NCBI GenBank assembly: GCA_934555895.1
Contig: CAKTFH010000009.1
Span: 7,316-71,315 of the forward strand
Reading direction: 5' to 3'
Length of the DNA stretch: 64,000 nucleotides
Source: an uncultured Muribaculaceae bacterium
Lineage (GTDB): Bacteria > Bacteroidota > Bacteroidia > Bacteroidales > Muribaculaceae
Shown: positions 24,472 to 52,622 of the stretch, in pieces
Position numbering within the stretch: position 1 is the stretch's first letter
How the letters are laid out: each line of letters starts with the position of its first letter
The notes under the pieces: generated by a model
What the model was told of the DNA's origin: nothing
Databases searched by the model: none
What the model saw: only the letters and a program-made list of their open reading frames with translations
Position numbers and translations under genes: made by a program

Positions 24472-24545
24472 TAGCGGGACCGAGAATTGAACTCGGGACC
24501 TCCGGGTTATGAATCCGACGCTCTAACCAACTGAGCTATCCCGCC
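24472..24545 (-). tRNA. tRNA-Met (CAT)
   Basis: 74-nt cloverleaf: acceptor GGCGGGA/TCCCGCT with a G1-U72 wobble, D-arm GCTC..GAGC, anticodon loop TTCATAA with CAT, T-arm CCGAG/CTCGG, discriminator A. The 31-39 pair is A-C, so the anticodon stem has four pairs. No CCA encoded. Elongator Met is most likely because the initiator's C1-A72 mismatch and GGG anticodon-stem pairs are absent; a lysidine-modified tRNA-Ile2 is a weaker alternative. Confidence 0.92.
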
Positions 24546-37902: not shown

Positions 37903-37973
37903 GGTACCATGGCCGAGTGGTTAGGTAACGGTCTGCAAAACCGTCTACAGCAGTTCGATTCTGCTTGGTACCT
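37903..37973 (+). tRNA. tRNA-Cys (GCA)
   Basis: 71-nt cloverleaf: acceptor GGTACCA/TGGTACC, D-arm GCC..GGT region, anticodon stem CGGTC-TGCAAAA-type loop with GCA and closing ACCG, T-arm AGCAG/CTGCT with TTCGATT, and U73 as expected for tRNA-Cys. CCA is not encoded. Confidence 0.95.
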
Positions 37974-47112: not shown

Positions 47113-48321
47113 TCAATCGCGGTCGAGGAAAAAGCGTGGGATGTTGCAGATGAAAAGGTCGGGATTGTCAAGGGCCACGCTGGCCTTCATGAGGTTATCT
47201 ATTGTGATGTCGCCTATCACATAGCTGTGCGACTCCGACTGGTAACGCTCATGAATTTCATCGAAATCGAAAGTCTCTATCTGTGAGGGGTGTTTATAGC
47301 GCAGGTAGACCCTCAGCTGCACATCGGTGGTGTAGGACGGCAGGCCCACATAATGCATTTTTTTGTACTCATAGCGATAGCCGTGCAGACGGGCCATAAC
47401 ATCGCTCAGTATCGAGGATGCCGTGGGGAGGCTGCCCGCGCCCTTGCCGAACATAAACTGGCGGTCGTAACACTCGCCGCGTATCACCACGCCGTTGTAT
47501 TCGTCGTCGACGCTGTAGATATATTTCGACGGCGATACGAATTCGGGCATCACGAACAGAGTGAAGCGGTCGTCGGCCACTTTCACCACCTGCGCCACAA
47601 GCTTTATCTTCACGCTTTTCTCGCGGGCATAGCGAATATCGTCGTCGGAGATATTGGCGATTCCGGCGGTGAATACCTCGTCGGGGTCGACATACACGCC
47701 CAGAGCGTGCACAGTGATAATCACGAGCTTGAACAGCGAGTCGTAGCCCTGGATGTCGAATGTGGGGTCGCTCTCGGCGAATCCGAGGCTCTGCGCCTTG
47801 GCAAGAGCGTCGTGGTAGCTCTCCCCGTGGTCGAACACACGCGACAGAATATAGTTCGACGAACCGTTGAGTATGCCTTTCACCTCAAGCAGAAGGTCGT
47901 TGTCGTAATACTCCTCGAGATTGCGTATCACCGGAATAGAGCCGCACGACGAGGCATCGTAGAGCAGAGCCGTGTTGTAACGGTTCTGCAACTCGATAAG
48001 CTCAGGGAGATGCCTGGCTATCATGGCCTTGTTGCCCGACACCACTGGGATGCCGCGGCGGAGCGCCTCGGTCACGAGCCTGTAGGATGCCTCGGCATCG
48101 TTGATTACCTCCACGATGAGGTTCACCTCGGGGTCGTTGAAGATATCATCGGGATTGTCGGTGAGCACGCCCGGAGGCACGGCCACTGGGCGCTGTCGGG
48201 TGATGTCGCGCACACATATGTGGCTTATCTCGGCATGCGCATTGCGTGCGTTGGCTATCACATGCACTATGCCGCGGCCCACGACGCCCAGGCCGAAGAG
48301 TCCAATCTTTATCTGTTTCAT
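47113..48321 (-). CDS. hom: Homoserine dehydrogenase
   Basis: 402 residues. NAD(P)-binding GLFGLGVVGRGIVHVI at the N-terminus, VVSGNKAMIARHLPEL, the substrate-site block EVKGILNGSSNYILSRV and LGFAESDPTFDIQGYDSLFKL, then a C-terminal segment from about 320 without a clear ACT signature. Monofunctional (not fused to aspartokinase), making homoserine from aspartate semialdehyde. It is the last gene of metY-metX-hom; its ATG overlaps the metX stop (ATGA at 48318-48321). Bacteroidales usually also have a fused thrA; if so, this copy is dedicated to methionine and controlled by the attenuator at 50629-50814. Confidence 0.93.
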   Translation of the reverse strand: MKQIKIGLFGLGVVGRGIVHVIANARNAHAEISHICVRDITRQRPVAVPPGVLTDNPDDIFNDPEVNLIVEVINDAEASYRLVTEALRRGIPVVSGNKAMIARHLPELIELQNRYNTALLYDASSCGSIPVIRNLEEYYDNDLLLEVKGILNGSSNYILSRVFDHGESYHDALAKAQSLGFAESDPTFDIQGYDSLFKLVIITVHALGVYVDPDEVFTAGIANISDDDIRYAREKSVKIKLVAQVVKVADDRFTLFVMPEFVSPSKYIYSVDDEYNGVVIRGECYDRQFMFGKGAGSLPTASSILSDVMARLHGYRYEYKKMHYVGLPSYTTDVQLRVYLRYKHPSQIETFDFDEIHERYQSESHSYVIGDITIDNLMKASVALDNPDLFICNIPRFFLDRD

Positions 48322-49334
48322 AGTTTCAAAAAGTCGTTAAGCAGTGAGTTGAGCTGTCCGTGTTCCACAAGGAAACCATCGTGGCCGAAGTCGGAATGGA
48401 TTTCGGCATATCGGGCGTGCGGAAGCATGGCGGCAAGCAGCCGCATCTCAGCGGGAGTGAAGATTATGTCGGTGGAGAGGCCTATCACCATAGCAGGCAT
48501 ATCCACCCGGGCGAGAGCCGCCTCCACACCCCCCCGGCCGCGCCCCACATCGTGAGTGTCGAACGAGTCGAGAATCGACACATAGGAGTAGGCGTTAAAC
48601 CTCCGACACAACTTGTCGCCCTGATGGCGCTGATAGGTGCACGCACGGTGCGGCACATCGGGTGTCTGTCCCTCGGGGTCATGCTGTGTGAGGTTGTAGC
48701 CCATCGGACCACGGTAAGTGAGCAATCCTATGGCACGTGCGGCCGCCATACCCTTCATGCCGGCGGCAGGGGATGGCTCTCCATAGGTGCTGTCGGCGAA
48801 TATGGCCATGCGCTGTGTCTCGTCGATGGCTATGGTCCAAGGCGAAGCTTTGGCATCAGTAGCTATAAGCACCAGGCGTCTGAATCGCTCTGGCTGCTGC
48901 ACAGCCCACTCTATGGCCTGGAATCCGCCCACGGAGCTGCCCACAAGTGCAGCAATAGTGTCTATGCCGAGATGATCGGCCAGGCGACGGTGTGCCGCCA
49001 CTATGTCGCGCATGGTCAGCCGTGGAAAATCCCCGTAATAAGGGTGCCCGGTAGCGGGATTGACCGACAGCGGACCTGTGGTGCCGTAGTGCGAACCGAG
49101 GATGTTGGCACACACCACAAACCACCTCCCGGGGTCGAGAAATTTACCCACCTCAACCGTATGTGGCCACCAGTCGGCCACATCGCTGTTGGCCGTGAGG
49201 GCATGGCACACCCACACCACATTATCGCGGGTCTCGCTGAGGGTGCCGTAAGTATGGTAGGCAATGTCAAGCTCCGGCAGCGCACCGCCAAGCTCGAGTT
49301 TCAAAGGTTCATTTGAATGGAATATTTTCATCAT
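48318..49334 (-). CDS. metX: Homoserine O-acetyltransferase
   Basis: 338 residues of the alpha/beta-hydrolase type. The nucleophile elbow GSSVGG (132-137, Ser134), NILGSHYGTTGP, STDIIFTPAEM with the acid and GHDGFLV with the catalytic His are all present. It forms O-acetyl-L-homoserine for direct sulfhydrylation by MetY, the upstream gene. The start overlaps the metY stop by four bases (ATGA at 49331-49334) and its own stop overlaps hom the same way, so all three are translationally coupled. Acetyl versus succinyl donor is predicted as acetyl from the family. Confidence 0.94.
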   Translation of the reverse strand: MMKIFHSNEPLKLELGGALPELDIAYHTYGTLSETRDNVVWVCHALTANSDVADWWPHTVEVGKFLDPGRWFVVCANILGSHYGTTGPLSVNPATGHPYYGDFPRLTMRDIVAAHRRLADHLGIDTIAALVGSSVGGFQAIEWAVQQPERFRRLVLIATDAKASPWTIAIDETQRMAIFADSTYGEPSPAAGMKGMAAARAIGLLTYRGPMGYNLTQHDPEGQTPDVPHRACTYQRHQGDKLCRRFNAYSYVSILDSFDTHDVGRGRGGVEAALARVDMPAMVIGLSTDIIFTPAEMRLLAAMLPHARYAEIHSDFGHDGFLVEHGQLNSLLNDFLKL

Positions 49335-50614
49335 AGACCGGCTTTTTCAAATGCCTGCGAGAAATCGGCGATGATATCCTCCACATCCTCCAGGCCGAGC
49401 GATATGCGCAGCAAAGTGGGTGTGACGCCGGCCTGCCTCAGGTCGACCTCGCTGAGCTGCTTGTGAGTGGTGGAGGCGGGATGTGTCACCACTGTTATCG
49501 AATCGCCGATCATGGTCATGTGGGCGGCGAGCTGCAGCGCCTCCACAAAGCGCACTGTGGAATCCACATCGCCCTTAAGCTCGACATTGAGCACAGCCGA
49601 GGAACCGAAACGGAAATATTTGGCAGCATTGGCATGCGAAGGATGGTTGTCGAAGCCCACGTAGCTTATCGAGCTCACCTTGTCGCTGCCGCGGAGGAAC
49701 TCGGCCAGACGGCGGGTAGACTCCACCTGATGGCGCACACGCAGCGACAGGGTCTCGAGTCCAAGCAACATCAGATAACTGTCGAAAGGCGACGGGCACG
49801 CACCCAAATCACGCAGGCCGTCGACACGGCACTTAACTATGAAAGCCTGGTTGCCGAATGTCTCCCAAAAGTTCAGGCCGTGGTAACCCTCTGAAGGAGC
49901 ATCTATGCTCTCGACTCCGCTCCAGTCGAAGTTGCCGCCGTCCACTATGATACCACCCATGGCCGTGCCATGGCCGTTGATCCATTTCGTAGCTGAATCG
50001 ACCACAATGTTGGCACCCCAGTGGAATGGATTGCACAGATATCCGCCGGCGCCGAAGGTATTGTCGACCACAAACGGGATGTGCCGGCTTGCAGCAAGTT
50101 TTCCGAGCCCCTCGAGGTCAGGCACGGCACAGGTGGGATTGCCCATGCTTTCTACGAACAGCGTCCGCGTACGGCTGTCGATAAGCTCCTCAAAATCGGC
50201 AGGCGACGGAGTGGCGGCTATGCGTACCTCGATGCCGAGGCGCTGCAGGGTGTGGCGAAATTGGTTGTAGGTGCCTCCGTAGAGGTAGGGCGACGCCACG
50301 ATGTTGTCGCCCTTGGAGGCGAGGGCCGTGATGGCAATTAGAATCGCTGACATGCCCGAAGATACCGCCAGCGCGCCCGAACCGCCATAGAGAGCGGCGA
50401 TGCGCTCCTCATAGGCCGAGGTGGTGGGGTTCTGCAGGCGTGTATAGATGTTGCCCGGCTGCGACAGCTCGAAAAGGTCGGCGGCATATCCGCAGGAGGG
50501 GAAGCGGTAGGCTGCCGTGGGATGGATGCCTATGCCACGCGAACAGGTAGGGTCCGTTTTGTCGAGGCCAGCATGAATCTGCAAGGTGTCGAAATGCAAG
50601 TTTTTTAAGTCCAT
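49331..50614 (-). CDS. metY: O-acetylhomoserine sulfhydrylase
   Basis: 427 residues, PLP enzyme of the Cys/Met metabolism family. HAGLDKTDPTCSRGIGIHPT at the N-terminus, YTRLQNPTTSAYEERIAALYGG, ESMGNPTCAVPDLEGL, DNTFGAGGYLCNPFHWGANIVVDSATKWINGHG with the PLP lysine, and HPASTTHKQL near the end are the MetY signature blocks. It makes homocysteine from O-acetylhomoserine and sulfide (and can take methanethiol). First structural gene of the operon, 15 bases after the T-run of the attenuator; expression should therefore depend on the leader peptide. Confidence 0.95.
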   Translation of the reverse strand: MDLKNLHFDTLQIHAGLDKTDPTCSRGIGIHPTAAYRFPSCGYAADLFELSQPGNIYTRLQNPTTSAYEERIAALYGGSGALAVSSGMSAILIAITALASKGDNIVASPYLYGGTYNQFRHTLQRLGIEVRIAATPSPADFEELIDSRTRTLFVESMGNPTCAVPDLEGLGKLAASRHIPFVVDNTFGAGGYLCNPFHWGANIVVDSATKWINGHGTAMGGIIVDGGNFDWSGVESIDAPSEGYHGLNFWETFGNQAFIVKCRVDGLRDLGACPSPFDSYLMLLGLETLSLRVRHQVESTRRLAEFLRGSDKVSSISYVGFDNHPSHANAAKYFRFGSSAVLNVELKGDVDSTVRFVEALQLAAHMTMIGDSITVVTHPASTTHKQLSEVDLRQAGVTPTLLRISLGLEDVEDIIADFSQAFEKAGL

Positions 50615-50628
50615 AATTGCGGAAGGTT

Positions 50629-50668
50629 AAAAACGAAACGACCGGCGAGGCTGATGCCGCACCGGTCG
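50629..50668 (-). terminator. Attenuator: intrinsic terminator between the leader peptide and metY
   Basis: Minus strand: CGACCGG-TGCGGC-ATCA-GCCTCG-CCGGTCG, a 13-bp stem with one mismatch and one G-U pair, four-base loop, then TTTCGTTTTT. It lies 29 bases after the leader stop and 15 bases before the metY ATG. Its 5' arm (50655-50666, ACCGGTGCGGCA) can instead pair with TGCCGTTCCGGT at 50710-50721 inside the leader ORF (10 of 12 pairs), assisted by TTGTGT/ACACAA. Confidence 0.85.
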
Positions 50669-50697
50669 CTTGTGTATAAGGGATTGAAAAAAGTTTC

Positions 50698-50814
50698 TCA
50701 CACAATCACACCGGAACGGCACGTGGCCATCATCATGCACATGCACATCACCATCATGGCCATGCCCTTGAGCGCGGCTGCCGATGTGTGATATGTAGTG
50801 TCTGTAGTAATCAT
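50698..50814 (-). CDS. Met/Cys-rich leader peptide of the metY-metX-hom operon
   Basis: An ORF of 38 codons from the ATG at 50814 to the TGA at 50698. The first half is MITTDTTYHTSAAALKG, then MAMMVMCMCMMM (residues 18-29: 8 Met and 2 Cys in 12), then ATCRSGVIV with a third Cys. Such composition has no other sensible reason than sensing charged tRNA-Met/tRNA-Cys, the end products of the operon. It begins about 22 bases after the predicted transcription start and is followed by the attenuator. Ribosomes slowed at codons 18-25 would leave codons 32-35 (50710-50721) free to pair with the terminator arm and let transcription proceed; ribosomes reaching the stop would cover them and the terminator would form. 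The peptide itself probably has no function. Confidence 0.85.
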   Translation of the reverse strand: MITTDTTYHTSAAALKGMAMMVMCMCMMMATCRSGVIV

Positions 50815-50842
50815 ATGACCGTTGTTTCGGTGTTTGATGCCA

Positions 50843-50874
50843 CAAAGTTAAGGATTGATTCCCGAACAACCAAA
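50843..50874 (-). promoter_or_regulatory. Promoter of the metY-metX-hom operon
   Basis: TTTG (50871-50874), 20-base spacer, TAACTTTG (50843-50850). Predicted start near 50836, giving a leader RNA of about 220 bases to metY. Confidence 0.85.
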
Positions 50875-50940: not shown

Positions 50941-50990
50941 AAAAACAGCCGCAGGCACCTTCTTCGCGAAGAAGAGGATGCCTGCGGGGA
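50941..50990 (-). terminator. Intrinsic terminator of pckA
   Basis: Minus strand: CCGCAGGCA (outer) and CTTCTT-CGCG-AAGAAG (inner) stems, 30 bases after the pckA stop, then a T-run (50941-50945 on +: AAAAA). Confidence 0.85.
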
Positions 50991-51017: not shown

Positions 51018-52622
51018 TCAGAGCTGGGGACCTGCAGCTACGAGAGCCTTGCCAACGGCATTGTTCTCATACTTCTTGAAGTTCTTGATGAAGCGTGCTG
51101 CGAGATCTTTAGCCTTAACCTCCCACTGTGCGGGATCTGCGTAAGTGTCGCGGGGGTCGAGGATGTTGGGGTCCACACCGGGAAGAGCTGTAGGAATCTC
51201 GAAGTCGAAGATGGGGAGCTTCTTGGTGGGTGCGGAAAGGATAGCGCCGTCGAGGATATCGTCGATGATGCCACGTGTATCCTTGATAGAGATGCGCTTG
51301 CCTGTGCCGTTCCAACCTGTGTTCACGAGGTAAGCCTTAGCACCGCTCTTCTCCATGCGCTTAACGAGTTCCTCGGCATATTTTGTGGGGTGGAGCTCAA
51401 GGAAAGCCTGGCCGAAGCAAGCCGAGAAGGTAGGAGTGGGCTCTGTGATGCCGCGCTCTGTGCCGGCGAGCTTGGCGGTGAAGCCGCTCAGGAAGTAATA
51501 CTTGGTCTGCTCGGGTGTGAGAATCGACACGGGAGGAAGCACTCCGAATGCGTCGGCCGAGAGGAAGATTACATTCTTTGCAGCAGGACCTGCGCTGATA
51601 GGCTCAACGATGCTCTCGATGTGGTTGATGGGGTAGCTTACGCGGGTATTCTCGGTAACGCTCTTGTCCTTGAAGTCGATTTTGCCGTCTTTGTCAACGG
51701 TAACGTTCTCGAGGAGGGCGTCGCGTGTGATGGCGTTGTAGATGTCAGGCTCGCTCTCTTTGTCGAGGTTGATGACCTTGGCATAGCAGCCACCCTCGAA
51801 GTTGAACACGCCGTTGTCGTCCCAGCCGTGCTCGTCGTCGCCGATAAGAAGACGCTTGGGGTCGGTGGAAAGAGTGGTCTTGCCTGTGCCGGAGAGACCG
51901 AAGAAGATAGCGGTGTTCTTGCCTTCCTTGTCGGTGTTGGCCGAGCAGTGCATCGAAGCGATACCCTGCTGGGGCAGATAGTAGTTCATCATCGAGAACA
52001 TACCTTTCTTCATCTCACCACCGTACCATGTGTTGATGATAACCTGCTCGCGGCTTGTGGTGTTGAACACAACAGCTGTCTCGGAGTTGAGGCCGAGCTC
52101 CTTGTAGTTCTTGACCTTGGCCTTGGAAGCGGTGTAGACCACGAAGTTGGGCTTGAAGTCCTTGAGTTCCTCCTCGGTGGGAGCGATGAACATGTTGGTC
52201 ACGAAGTGAGCCTGCCATGCCACCTCCATGATGAAGCGCACAGCCATGCGGGTATCCTTATTGGCGCCGCAGAAGCGGTCAACCACATAAAGCTTCTTGC
52301 CTGAGAGTTCCTTGACGGCGATTTCCTTGACAGCCTTCCATGTCTCTTCGGTCACGGGCTTGTTGTCGTTGGGATATTCTTCGGTTGTCCACCATACTTT
52401 GTCCTTCGAGTTGGCGTCGAGAACAATGAACTTGTCTTTAGGCGAACGGCCGGTGTAAACGCCGGTCATCACATTCACTGCGCCGAGCTCAGTGACAACG
52501 CCTTTCTCGAAACCTTCGAGAGAGGGGTCAGTCTCGTCTTTGAACAGCTGCTCGTAGGTGGGGTTGTAAATCACCTCTTTAACATCGGTGATACCATACT
52601 GCGACAAATCGATCTTGCTCAT
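51018..52622 (-). CDS. pckA: Phosphoenolpyruvate carboxykinase (ATP)
   Basis: 534 residues. Catalyses the reversible oxaloacetate/PEP step; in Bacteroidales it runs mainly toward oxaloacetate to fix CO2 on the succinate pathway. Seen: [27 protein letters not shown], the kinase loop [19 protein letters not shown], and the adenine-binding [14 protein letters not shown]. Length is typical (530-540). Codons are more uniformly of the abundant kind than in neighbours, as expected for a highly expressed gene. It has its own complete promoter (52747-52776) overlapped by a 40-bp palindrome, and a strong terminator. Confidence 0.98.

What the first reader, a model, noticed from the sequence alone, without database searches (positions are those of the whole stretch)
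50629..50874. Met/Cys-rich leader peptide and transcription attenuator controlling metY-metX-hom
Seen directly: a complete promoter, a 38-codon ORF with MAMMVMCMCMMM at residues 18-29, a 13-bp terminator with T-run 15 bases before metY, and an alternative pairing of 50710-50721 (codons 32-35) with the terminator 5' arm 50655-50666 at 10 of 12 positions, reinforced by TTGTGT/ACACAA. Known: classical attenuators (trp, his, leu) work by ribosome stalling on codons of the end product. Inference: stalling at codons 18-25 when Met-tRNA (or Cys-tRNA) is short frees codons 32-35 and blocks termination. The operon makes homocysteine from homoserine and sulfide, so both amino acids are fitting signals. 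I do not recall a methionine leader peptide described in Bacteroidota; elsewhere Met genes are mostly under SAM riboswitches, T-boxes or MetJ. The ORF is below usual gene-calling limits, so it is probably missing from annotations.
Basis: partly seen in the sequence, partly recalled or inferred. Interest (0 to 1): 0.85.

Follow-up and report, generated by a model that had tools for sequence, protein, structure and literature searches.

The report
Methionine-sensing leader peptide attenuator
In front of methionine-making genes, these gut bacteria carry a tiny methionine-packed gene whose RNA looks built to switch the genes off when methionine is plentiful and on when it runs short, a control not found described for methionine in the papers searched.

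Summary
In detail: before metY-metX-hom (minus strand) lie a promoter-like sequence, a 38-codon ORF with MAMMVMCMCMMM at residues 18-29, and a terminator whose 5' arm can instead pair with ORF codons 32-35. Comparison now makes the attenuator reading strong. In the MetY tree 29 of 34 rows of the window's clade pass a Met/Cys-run threshold. In 25 aligned leaders the antiterminator keeps 87.4% of pairs against 78.0% shuffled, with 22 double-sided changes; the terminator covaries too. A model of the leader searched in 297 genomes gave 30 hits at E<=1.4e-8, all before methionine-pathway genes, including metX-hom without metY; 19 of the 30 were training sequences. Met codons outnumber Cys 149 to 33, so methionine is the likelier signal. 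Elsewhere, mostly in Bacteroidota, 35 of 42 SAM-I riboswitches found on the metY strand have an ATG 7-15 nt behind them opening a short ORF, 17 of these ending in Cys-rich stretches. The window's family showed no SAM-I riboswitch in 149 genomes. Termination and stalling were not measured. Ten literature searches listed no methionine leader peptide.

The parts
50843..50873 (-). Promoter-like sequence: TTG (50873-50871), 20-nt spacer, TAACTTTG (50850-50843)
   Evidence: Read; TAnnTTTG upstream of the leader in 31 of 35 loci versus 255 of 3100 random 170-nt pieces. That this is the Bacteroidota consensus is recalled, not from a call.
50698..50814 (-). Leader peptide ORF, 38 codons
   Evidence: Met/Cys run in relatives
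50728..50763 (-). Control codons 18-29 (MAMMVMCMCMMM)
50710..50721 (-). Antiterminator strand, leader codons 32-35, pairs with 50655-50666
   Evidence: 10 of 12 Watson-Crick, 11 with G-U; covariation in 25 leaders
50655..50666 (-). Terminator 5' arm segment shared by terminator and antiterminator
50629..50671 (-). Intrinsic terminator: hairpin about 50636-50671 and T-rich tract to 50629
   Evidence: compensatory changes in 9 of 11 pairs
49331..50614 (-). metY, O-acetylhomoserine aminocarboxypropyltransferase
   Evidence: TIGR01326, 533.6 bits over cut-off 495.1
48318..49334 (-). metX, homoserine O-acetyltransferase (best family matches are below their curated cut-offs)
   Evidence: TIGR01392 E 2.1e-102, 342.8 bits, cut-off 500; PRK00175 324.1 bits, cut-off 331; overlaps metY end by 4 nt
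47113..48321 (-). hom, homoserine dehydrogenase
   Evidence: NF004976, 307.5 bits over cut-off 205; overlaps metX end by 4 nt
50950..50987 (-). Hairpin followed by CTGTTTTT after pckA (51018-52622), likely the terminator of pckA, which would set the leader-met operon apart
   Evidence: fold; pckA

Best explanation
The element is a ribosome-mediated transcription attenuator that senses charged methionyl-tRNA (with a smaller contribution of cysteinyl-tRNA) and controls the metY-metX-hom operon. Shown by sequence and comparison: promoter-like sequence, leader ORF with a Met run, terminator, and a strand inside the last leader codons that can compete for the terminator 5' arm, with compensatory changes in both helices among relatives. 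Inferred: when methionine is plentiful the ribosome runs to the stop codon, covers codons 32-35, and the terminator forms; when Met-tRNA is short the ribosome pauses in the Met run, codons 32-35 pair with the terminator arm as it emerges, and RNA polymerase reads into metY. In the folding model an untranslated leader also favours the antiterminator, so failure of initiation under severe methionine shortage (the initiator is methionine too) would also leave the operon on; this is inference.
For: Leader: of 110 loci with at least 150 nt upstream of metY (one a duplicate: L082 of L006), 40 have 5 or more Met/Cys in a 10-codon window of an ATG-started short ORF on the sense strand, 0 on the antisense strand; 35 beat all 500 shuffles. 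Pairing: in 29 loci (two with a wrongly picked hairpin, L131 and L019, included) own leader tail and terminator arm pair at mean -15.9 kcal/mol, swapped partners -11.9, 0 of 20000 permutations as low. A1, 25 leaders: antiterminator 87.4% of cells paired (shuffled 78.0, 0 of 500), 22 cells changed on both sides (0 of 500), slid partners 23.5-50.0%; terminator 9 of 11 pairs with compensatory changes. Ribosome-footprint folding: antiterminator measure 1.18 at the median hungry codon, 0.01 at the stop; first hungry codon exceeds stop by over 0.3 in 23 of 27 loci. Regulon: 30 of 30 model hits at E<=1.4e-8 in 297 genomes precede methionine genes: 26 metY, 3 metX-hom, 1 PLP enzyme of the MetY/MetB superfamily followed by a PatB-family C-S lyase; 11 of the 30 (7 metY and all 4 others) were not training sequences of the model. 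Operon kept: metX adjacent in 32 of 33, hom within 2.5 kb in 11 of 11 close Met-leader loci with room.
Against: No transcript, term-seq or ribosome data. 26 of the 62 close rows of the tree fall below the leader threshold: 12 with Alistipes or Rikenellaceae titles, a separate four-row clade, and ten others. 10 of 39 close leader loci gave no terminator by the rule used: five Muribaculaceae-type loci show a hairpin without a qualifying T tract, five Alistipes-type leaders show none. In 7 of 29 loci more than 10 of 200 shuffled leader tails paired as well as the real one (L131, L134, L137, L138, L008, L018, L019). The count of pairs with double-sided change in A1 (5) was reached in 29 of 500 shuffles. 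In the folding model 4 of 27 loci (L005, L007, L008, L018) show little antiterminator at the first hungry codon. In the new loci L184, L185 and L186 the pairing did not clearly beat shuffled tails (349, 150 and 107 of 1000). At least five genomes with a close metY (G232, G304, G405, G485, G487) had no strong model hit; only 10 candidates per genome were scored. No strong protector hairpin of the trp kind was seen.
Confidence: 0.87

Rival explanations
1. The leader senses cysteine, or both sulfur amino acids equally, rather than mainly methionine.
For: Two of the ten Met/Cys codons in the window run are Cys, and in the folding model a stall at either (C24, C26) leaves the window's antiterminator free. 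Cys-run leaders precede metY elsewhere: 16 leaders, all mixing TGT and TGC.
Against: In 27 loci of the window's type Met outnumbers Cys 149 to 33, and some runs have no Cys (L129, L134, L006). The same leader precedes metX-hom, whose enzymes make activated homoserine and no sulfur compound (pathway recalled).
Confidence: 0.1
2. The Met run works as an arrest peptide that senses a small molecule such as SAM in the ribosome tunnel, not as codons sensing tRNA charging.
For: Leader length is about 30-35 codons in many loci and a C-terminus like SRxSRV recurs in the clade.
Against: The N-terminal part varies freely and the order of residues in the run changes between loci; the recurring C-terminus is explained by base pairing that is kept when the residues change.
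Confidence: 0.05
3. An ordinary terminator and an ORF without function: constitutive partial termination.
For: No expression data exist here.
Against: 40 sense against 0 antisense leaders, covariation of the competing helices, recurring promoter-like sequence, restriction of strong model hits to methionine genes.
Confidence: 0.02
4. A SAM riboswitch or other known aptamer controls the operon and the ORF is incidental.
For: SAM-I riboswitches do precede metY in other Bacteroidota.
Against: No riboswitch at gathering score in the window, only implausible matches at E<=10 in the leader; none at metY in the 28 close loci scanned; RF00162 in 0 of 149 family genomes (strict filters, 23 candidates scored per genome).
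Confidence: 0.02

Closest known systems
Classical ribosome-mediated attenuators (trp, his, leu, thr, phe of Proteobacteria)
   Same: Leader ORF with control codons, terminator before the first gene, antiterminator overlapping the end of the leader ORF, genes that make the control amino acid (classical details recalled).
   Different: Control amino acid is methionine, which is also the initiator; no clear protector hairpin in the folding model; a Bacteroidota host.
Bacteroid-trp RNA motif, RF01692 (PMC2864571; a table row seen)
   Same: Bacteroidetes, listed there as a likely cis-regulatory RNA; its tie to trp genes and a leader peptide is recalled.
   Different: Tryptophan; no Rfam match to it in the window.
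uORFC-8-2 cysteine attenuator of cysS, Rhodobacterales (PMC8632094; passages seen)
   Same: Predicted ribosome-mediated attenuation on a sulfur amino acid with a terminator-like stem and U run.
   Different: Two tandem Cys codons, controls cysS, alpha-proteobacteria.
Cys leader peptides of Actinobacteria (PMC1262725; passages seen)
   Same: [quoted passage not shown] resembles the Cys-run leaders of other Bacteroidota.
   Different: No conserved terminator hairpins there; that survey reports no conserved RNA structure before methionine operons.
SAM-I riboswitch, RF00162
   Same: Precedes metY in many other Bacteroidota.
   Different: Not found in the window nor in 149 family genomes.

Membership tests
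Ribosome-mediated transcription attenuator | Short ORF with a run of control codons between promoter and first gene | tested here: met
Ribosome-mediated transcription attenuator | Control amino acid is a product of the regulated operon's pathway | tested here: met
   metY-metX-hom; 30 of 30 strong model hits before methionine-pathway genes
Ribosome-mediated transcription attenuator | Intrinsic terminator before the first gene | tested here: met
   window; relatives; 10 of 39 close loci failed the terminator rule
Ribosome-mediated transcription attenuator | Mutually exclusive antiterminator that overlaps the leader end and is masked by a ribosome at the stop codon | tested here: met
   computed only:
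Ribosome-mediated transcription attenuator | Protector (1:2) hairpin giving termination without translation (a trp feature; whether every attenuator needs it is recalled as no) | tested here: inconclusive
Ribosome-mediated transcription attenuator | Stalling and readthrough on starvation shown by experiment | not testable with these tools
   no expression data
SAM-I riboswitch (RF00162) | Match to the SAM aptamer model | tested here: not met
   family genomes
T-box leader | Match to an Rfam T-box model | tested here: not met
   no such hit
uORFC-8-2 Cys attenuator | Tandem Cys codons before cysS | tested here: not met
   Met run before metY

The most novel reading that the evidence does not exclude
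Across Bacteroidota the metY leader is a two-input device: a SAM-I riboswitch gates translation of a short leader ORF whose ATG lies 7-15 nt behind the aptamer, and Cys or Met codons at the end of that ORF add a second, tRNA-charging input. In the window's family the riboswitch is gone and the leader ORF has taken over methionine sensing with a long Met run and a terminator/antiterminator switch: a metabolite sensor replaced by a codon sensor at the same gene.
Probability: 0.5. Interest if true: 0.78.

Novelty: new variant of a known kind. Interest (0 to 1): 0.66.

Why it matters
It would add methionine to the amino acids sensed by leader-peptide attenuation, in a gut family for whose methionine control I found no description. 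It raises a testable question: how a leader that starts with methionine senses methionine. The wider pattern, a SAM riboswitch placed directly before a Cys/Met leader ORF, offers a natural series for studying how one sensor replaces another at one gene.

Tried and rejected
A SAM or other Rfam element in the window leader was sought and not found. No whole genome is held for the window, so other leaders in its own genome could not be counted. My first register for the terminator in A1 was off by one column and scored no better than shuffles (46.7% of cells, 401 of 500); the slide of -1 in the same call gave 93.3%, and fold_alignment gave the same register on its own. An intrinsic terminator for the Cys-run, Alistipes-type and Marinilabiliaceae leaders was sought by script and mostly not found. 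That the Met run is a DNA or RNA repeat rather than codons was rejected: Met+Cys counts by frame are 413, 115 and 4 in 60 leaders (frame 1 was the frame chosen for its Met/Cys score, so it leads by construction), and Cys-run leaders mix TGT and TGC in 16 of 16. Weaker hits of the RNA model (E 3e-6 and above; 141 of 297 genomes have some match at E<=0.01) were short matches, many covering only the terminator half of the model; they were not followed, and the listing was cut.

Limits of counts: one search kept the best 80 of at least 592 relatives. One search examined 39 of the 62 close loci (those with a score of 5 or more plus L004, L120, L131, L134, L144, of which I named L004, L120, L131, L134 and L144 by hand); 29 had a hairpin by the rule; L131 and L019 were then dropped as wrongly picked hairpins (27 loci); A1 used 25 of these 27, without L144 and L004. 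Rfam was not run on L030, L045, L047, L080, on 8 of the 28 loci L083-L110, nor on L081, L082 and L111 onward. The background used random pieces of the loci, mostly coding, so it may understate the intergenic rate. Swap and shuffle tests ignore relatedness; slides do not. The order 'SAM riboswitch lost, Met leader gained' is inferred. Gene names for L187-L205 are read by eye. The window's own taxonomy is inferred from its nearest relatives (L126 in the family of L006, a contig titled Muribaculaceae).

Full report
What is there. On the minus strand of the window, between pckA (51018-52622) and metY (49331-50614), searches show TTG-N20-TAACTTTG (50873-50843), a 38-codon ORF at 50698-50814 with MAMMVMCMCMMM at residues 18-29, and a hairpin with a T-rich tract ending 14 bases before metY. 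Codons 32-35 (50710-50721) can pair with the terminator 5' arm (50655-50666) at 10 of 12 Watson-Crick positions, 11 with G-U. metY, metX and hom overlap end to start by 4 nt each and match the methionine families named (metX with E 2.1e-102 but below the curated cut-offs). A hairpin followed by T residues lies behind pckA, so leader and operon look like a separate unit.

Is it more than chance. I collected metY relatives from genome contigs (80 loci kept) and from unnamed whole genomes; a close metY (E<=1e-190) occurs in 42 of 397 genomes of the family. In 110 loci with at least 150 nt upstream (one a duplicate), the best ATG-started short ORF had 5 or more Met/Cys in 10 codons in 40 loci on the sense strand and in 0 on the antisense strand; 35 beat all 500 dinucleotide shuffles. 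In the tree of 142 MetY rows the window groups with L126 (88% identical) at full support, and the clade of 34 rows around it has 29 over the leader threshold; of the five below, L004 and L134 show shorter Met runs. In the whole set of 62 close rows 36 pass and 26 do not, 12 of these with Alistipes or Rikenellaceae titles. TAnnTTTG lies in the region upstream of the leader in 31 of 35 close leader loci against 255 of 3100 random pieces.

Competing helices. The last codons of the leader (often GAGCCGG-GTG-stop) pair with the terminator 5' arm (CCGGCTC). Across 29 loci the locus's own partners pair at a mean of -15.9 kcal/mol against -11.9 for swapped partners, and 0 of 20000 permutations was as low; against shuffled tails, 22 of 29 loci were beaten by 10 or fewer of 200. 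In A1, 25 leaders aligned, the 8-pair antiterminator has 87.4% of cells paired (shuffled 78.0, 0 of 500), 22 cells changed on both sides (0 of 500) in five pairs (five or more in 29 of 500 shuffles); sliding by 1 to 3 columns gives 23.5-50.0%. The terminator has 9 of 11 pairs with compensatory changes. The shared arm therefore covaries with both partners, as one search shows column by column (for example G-C, A-U and U-A at one position).

How it would work. Folding the nascent RNA with a ribosome footprint gives an antiterminator measure of 1.18 with the A site at the median hungry codon, 0.57 at the last and 0.01 at the stop codon; in 23 of 27 loci the first hungry codon exceeds the stop by more than 0.3. 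L005, L007, L008 and L018 do not. With no ribosome the mean is 1.12, so this model shows no strong protector hairpin. That differs from trp as I recall it, and would fit a system whose start codon is itself methionine: failing initiation would also leave the operon on. This last step is inference.

Which amino acid. In 27 loci the run holds 149 Met and 33 Cys codons. A covariance model of A1 (R1; terminator pairs only) searched in 297 genomes of the family gave 30 hits at E<=1.4e-8. 26 precede metY (25 lie directly before metY places; the 26th, L183). Four precede metX-hom (L182, L184, L186) or a PLP enzyme of the MetY/MetB superfamily followed by a PatB-family C-S lyase (L185), (hom by family search in L182, by eye in L184 and L186). 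One genome (G466) has two copies. 19 of the 30 were training sequences; 7 metY sites and the 4 others were not. At least five genomes with a close metY had no strong hit (G232, G304, G405, G485, G487). In the new loci the antiterminator beat most shuffled tails in L182 and L183 (21 and 17 of 1000 as good) but not clearly in L184, L185 and L186 (349, 150, 107). metX-hom makes activated homoserine and no sulfur compound, so methionine fits better than cysteine.

Wider context. SAM-I riboswitches (RF00162) lie before metY in many other Bacteroidota and two Chlorobiota contigs. Of 42 found on the metY strand, 35 have an ATG 7-15 nt after the aptamer that opens an ORF of 23-49 codons (33 of the 39 that lie within 600 nt of metY). 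Of these 35 ORFs, 17 have three or more Cys in the last ten residues, 7 others two or more Met, and 11 neither. In nine genomes 19 riboswitches were found: 11 had an ATG within 25 nt, and 8, whose next long ORFs look by eye like metH, metE, metF and two PLP enzymes, had none; in one (L197) the ATG at +10 is that of the gene itself. So the aptamer seems placed to control initiation of the leader ORF. The 28 close loci scanned have no SAM riboswitch and RF00162 was found in 0 of 149 family genomes (strict filters, 23 candidates scored per genome; the control rang in 3 of 14 named genomes, and the same family was found in 8 of 9 genomes with 150 candidates scored). Marinilabiliaceae L061, L063 and L067 also have Met-rich leaders without a SAM hit at metY and without a terminator by the script. 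The Met leader may therefore have replaced the riboswitch; the direction is inferred.

Known or new. Passages of PMC7366714, PMC9723704, PMC2965389, PMC1262725, PMC2864571 and PMC8632094 were read, no whole text. They mention leader-peptide attenuation in Bacteroides and Flavobacterium in general terms, cysteine leaders in Actinobacteria and Rhodobacterales, and the Bacteroid-trp motif. Ten searches listed no paper that I recognised as describing a bacterial methionine leader peptide; one search listed 20 of 95 papers, and subscription papers and preprints are not in that library. Mechanism class: known. Control amino acid, host group and link to the SAM riboswitch: new as far as I could search.

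Noticed in passing
L040 3598-3857 and 34 other loci listed: SAM-I riboswitch followed 7-15 nt later by the ATG of a short leader ORF, in 17 of 35 Cys-rich at its end (for example MCMCCCCC), before metY; contig titles include Pontibacter, Flavobacteriales, Mucilaginibacter and Haliscomenobacter.
   Followed up: partly
L011, L014, L015, L021, L028, L145 (upstream of metY): Alistipes-type leaders end in MRMCR with a short hairpin over the stop codon (GTGCCGTTAGGCAC in L014 and L028) and no terminator by the script: a different output step.
   Followed up: no
L061, L063, L067 (upstream of metY): Marinilabiliaceae leaders (MMMCMMMTR, MMCRMMMMTF) without a SAM riboswitch hit at metY and without a T-tract terminator; L061 and L067 show a possible long-range ACGCATCG / CGGTGCGT pairing after the stop, by eye.
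   Followed up: no
L031 and L044 (upstream of metY): Met-rich leaders with a hairpin and T tract (-15.2 and -20.6 kcal/mol) in contigs titled Melioribacter and Candidatus Zixiibacteriota, outside Bacteroidota.
   Followed up: no
L199 and L194: SAM-I riboswitch plus leader ORF ending RLCSCCCC before what looks by eye like an outer-membrane receptor (L199), and ending NMCMHQRF before what looks like a homocysteine biosynthesis protein (L194).
   Followed up: no
A1 about columns 101-106 (after the leader stop codon): A TTGTC-like motif follows the leader stop in many relatives (consensus); function unknown.
   Followed up: no
window 24472-24545 (-) and 37903-37973 (+): Two tRNA genes, the only Rfam gathering hits in the window.
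   Followed up: no
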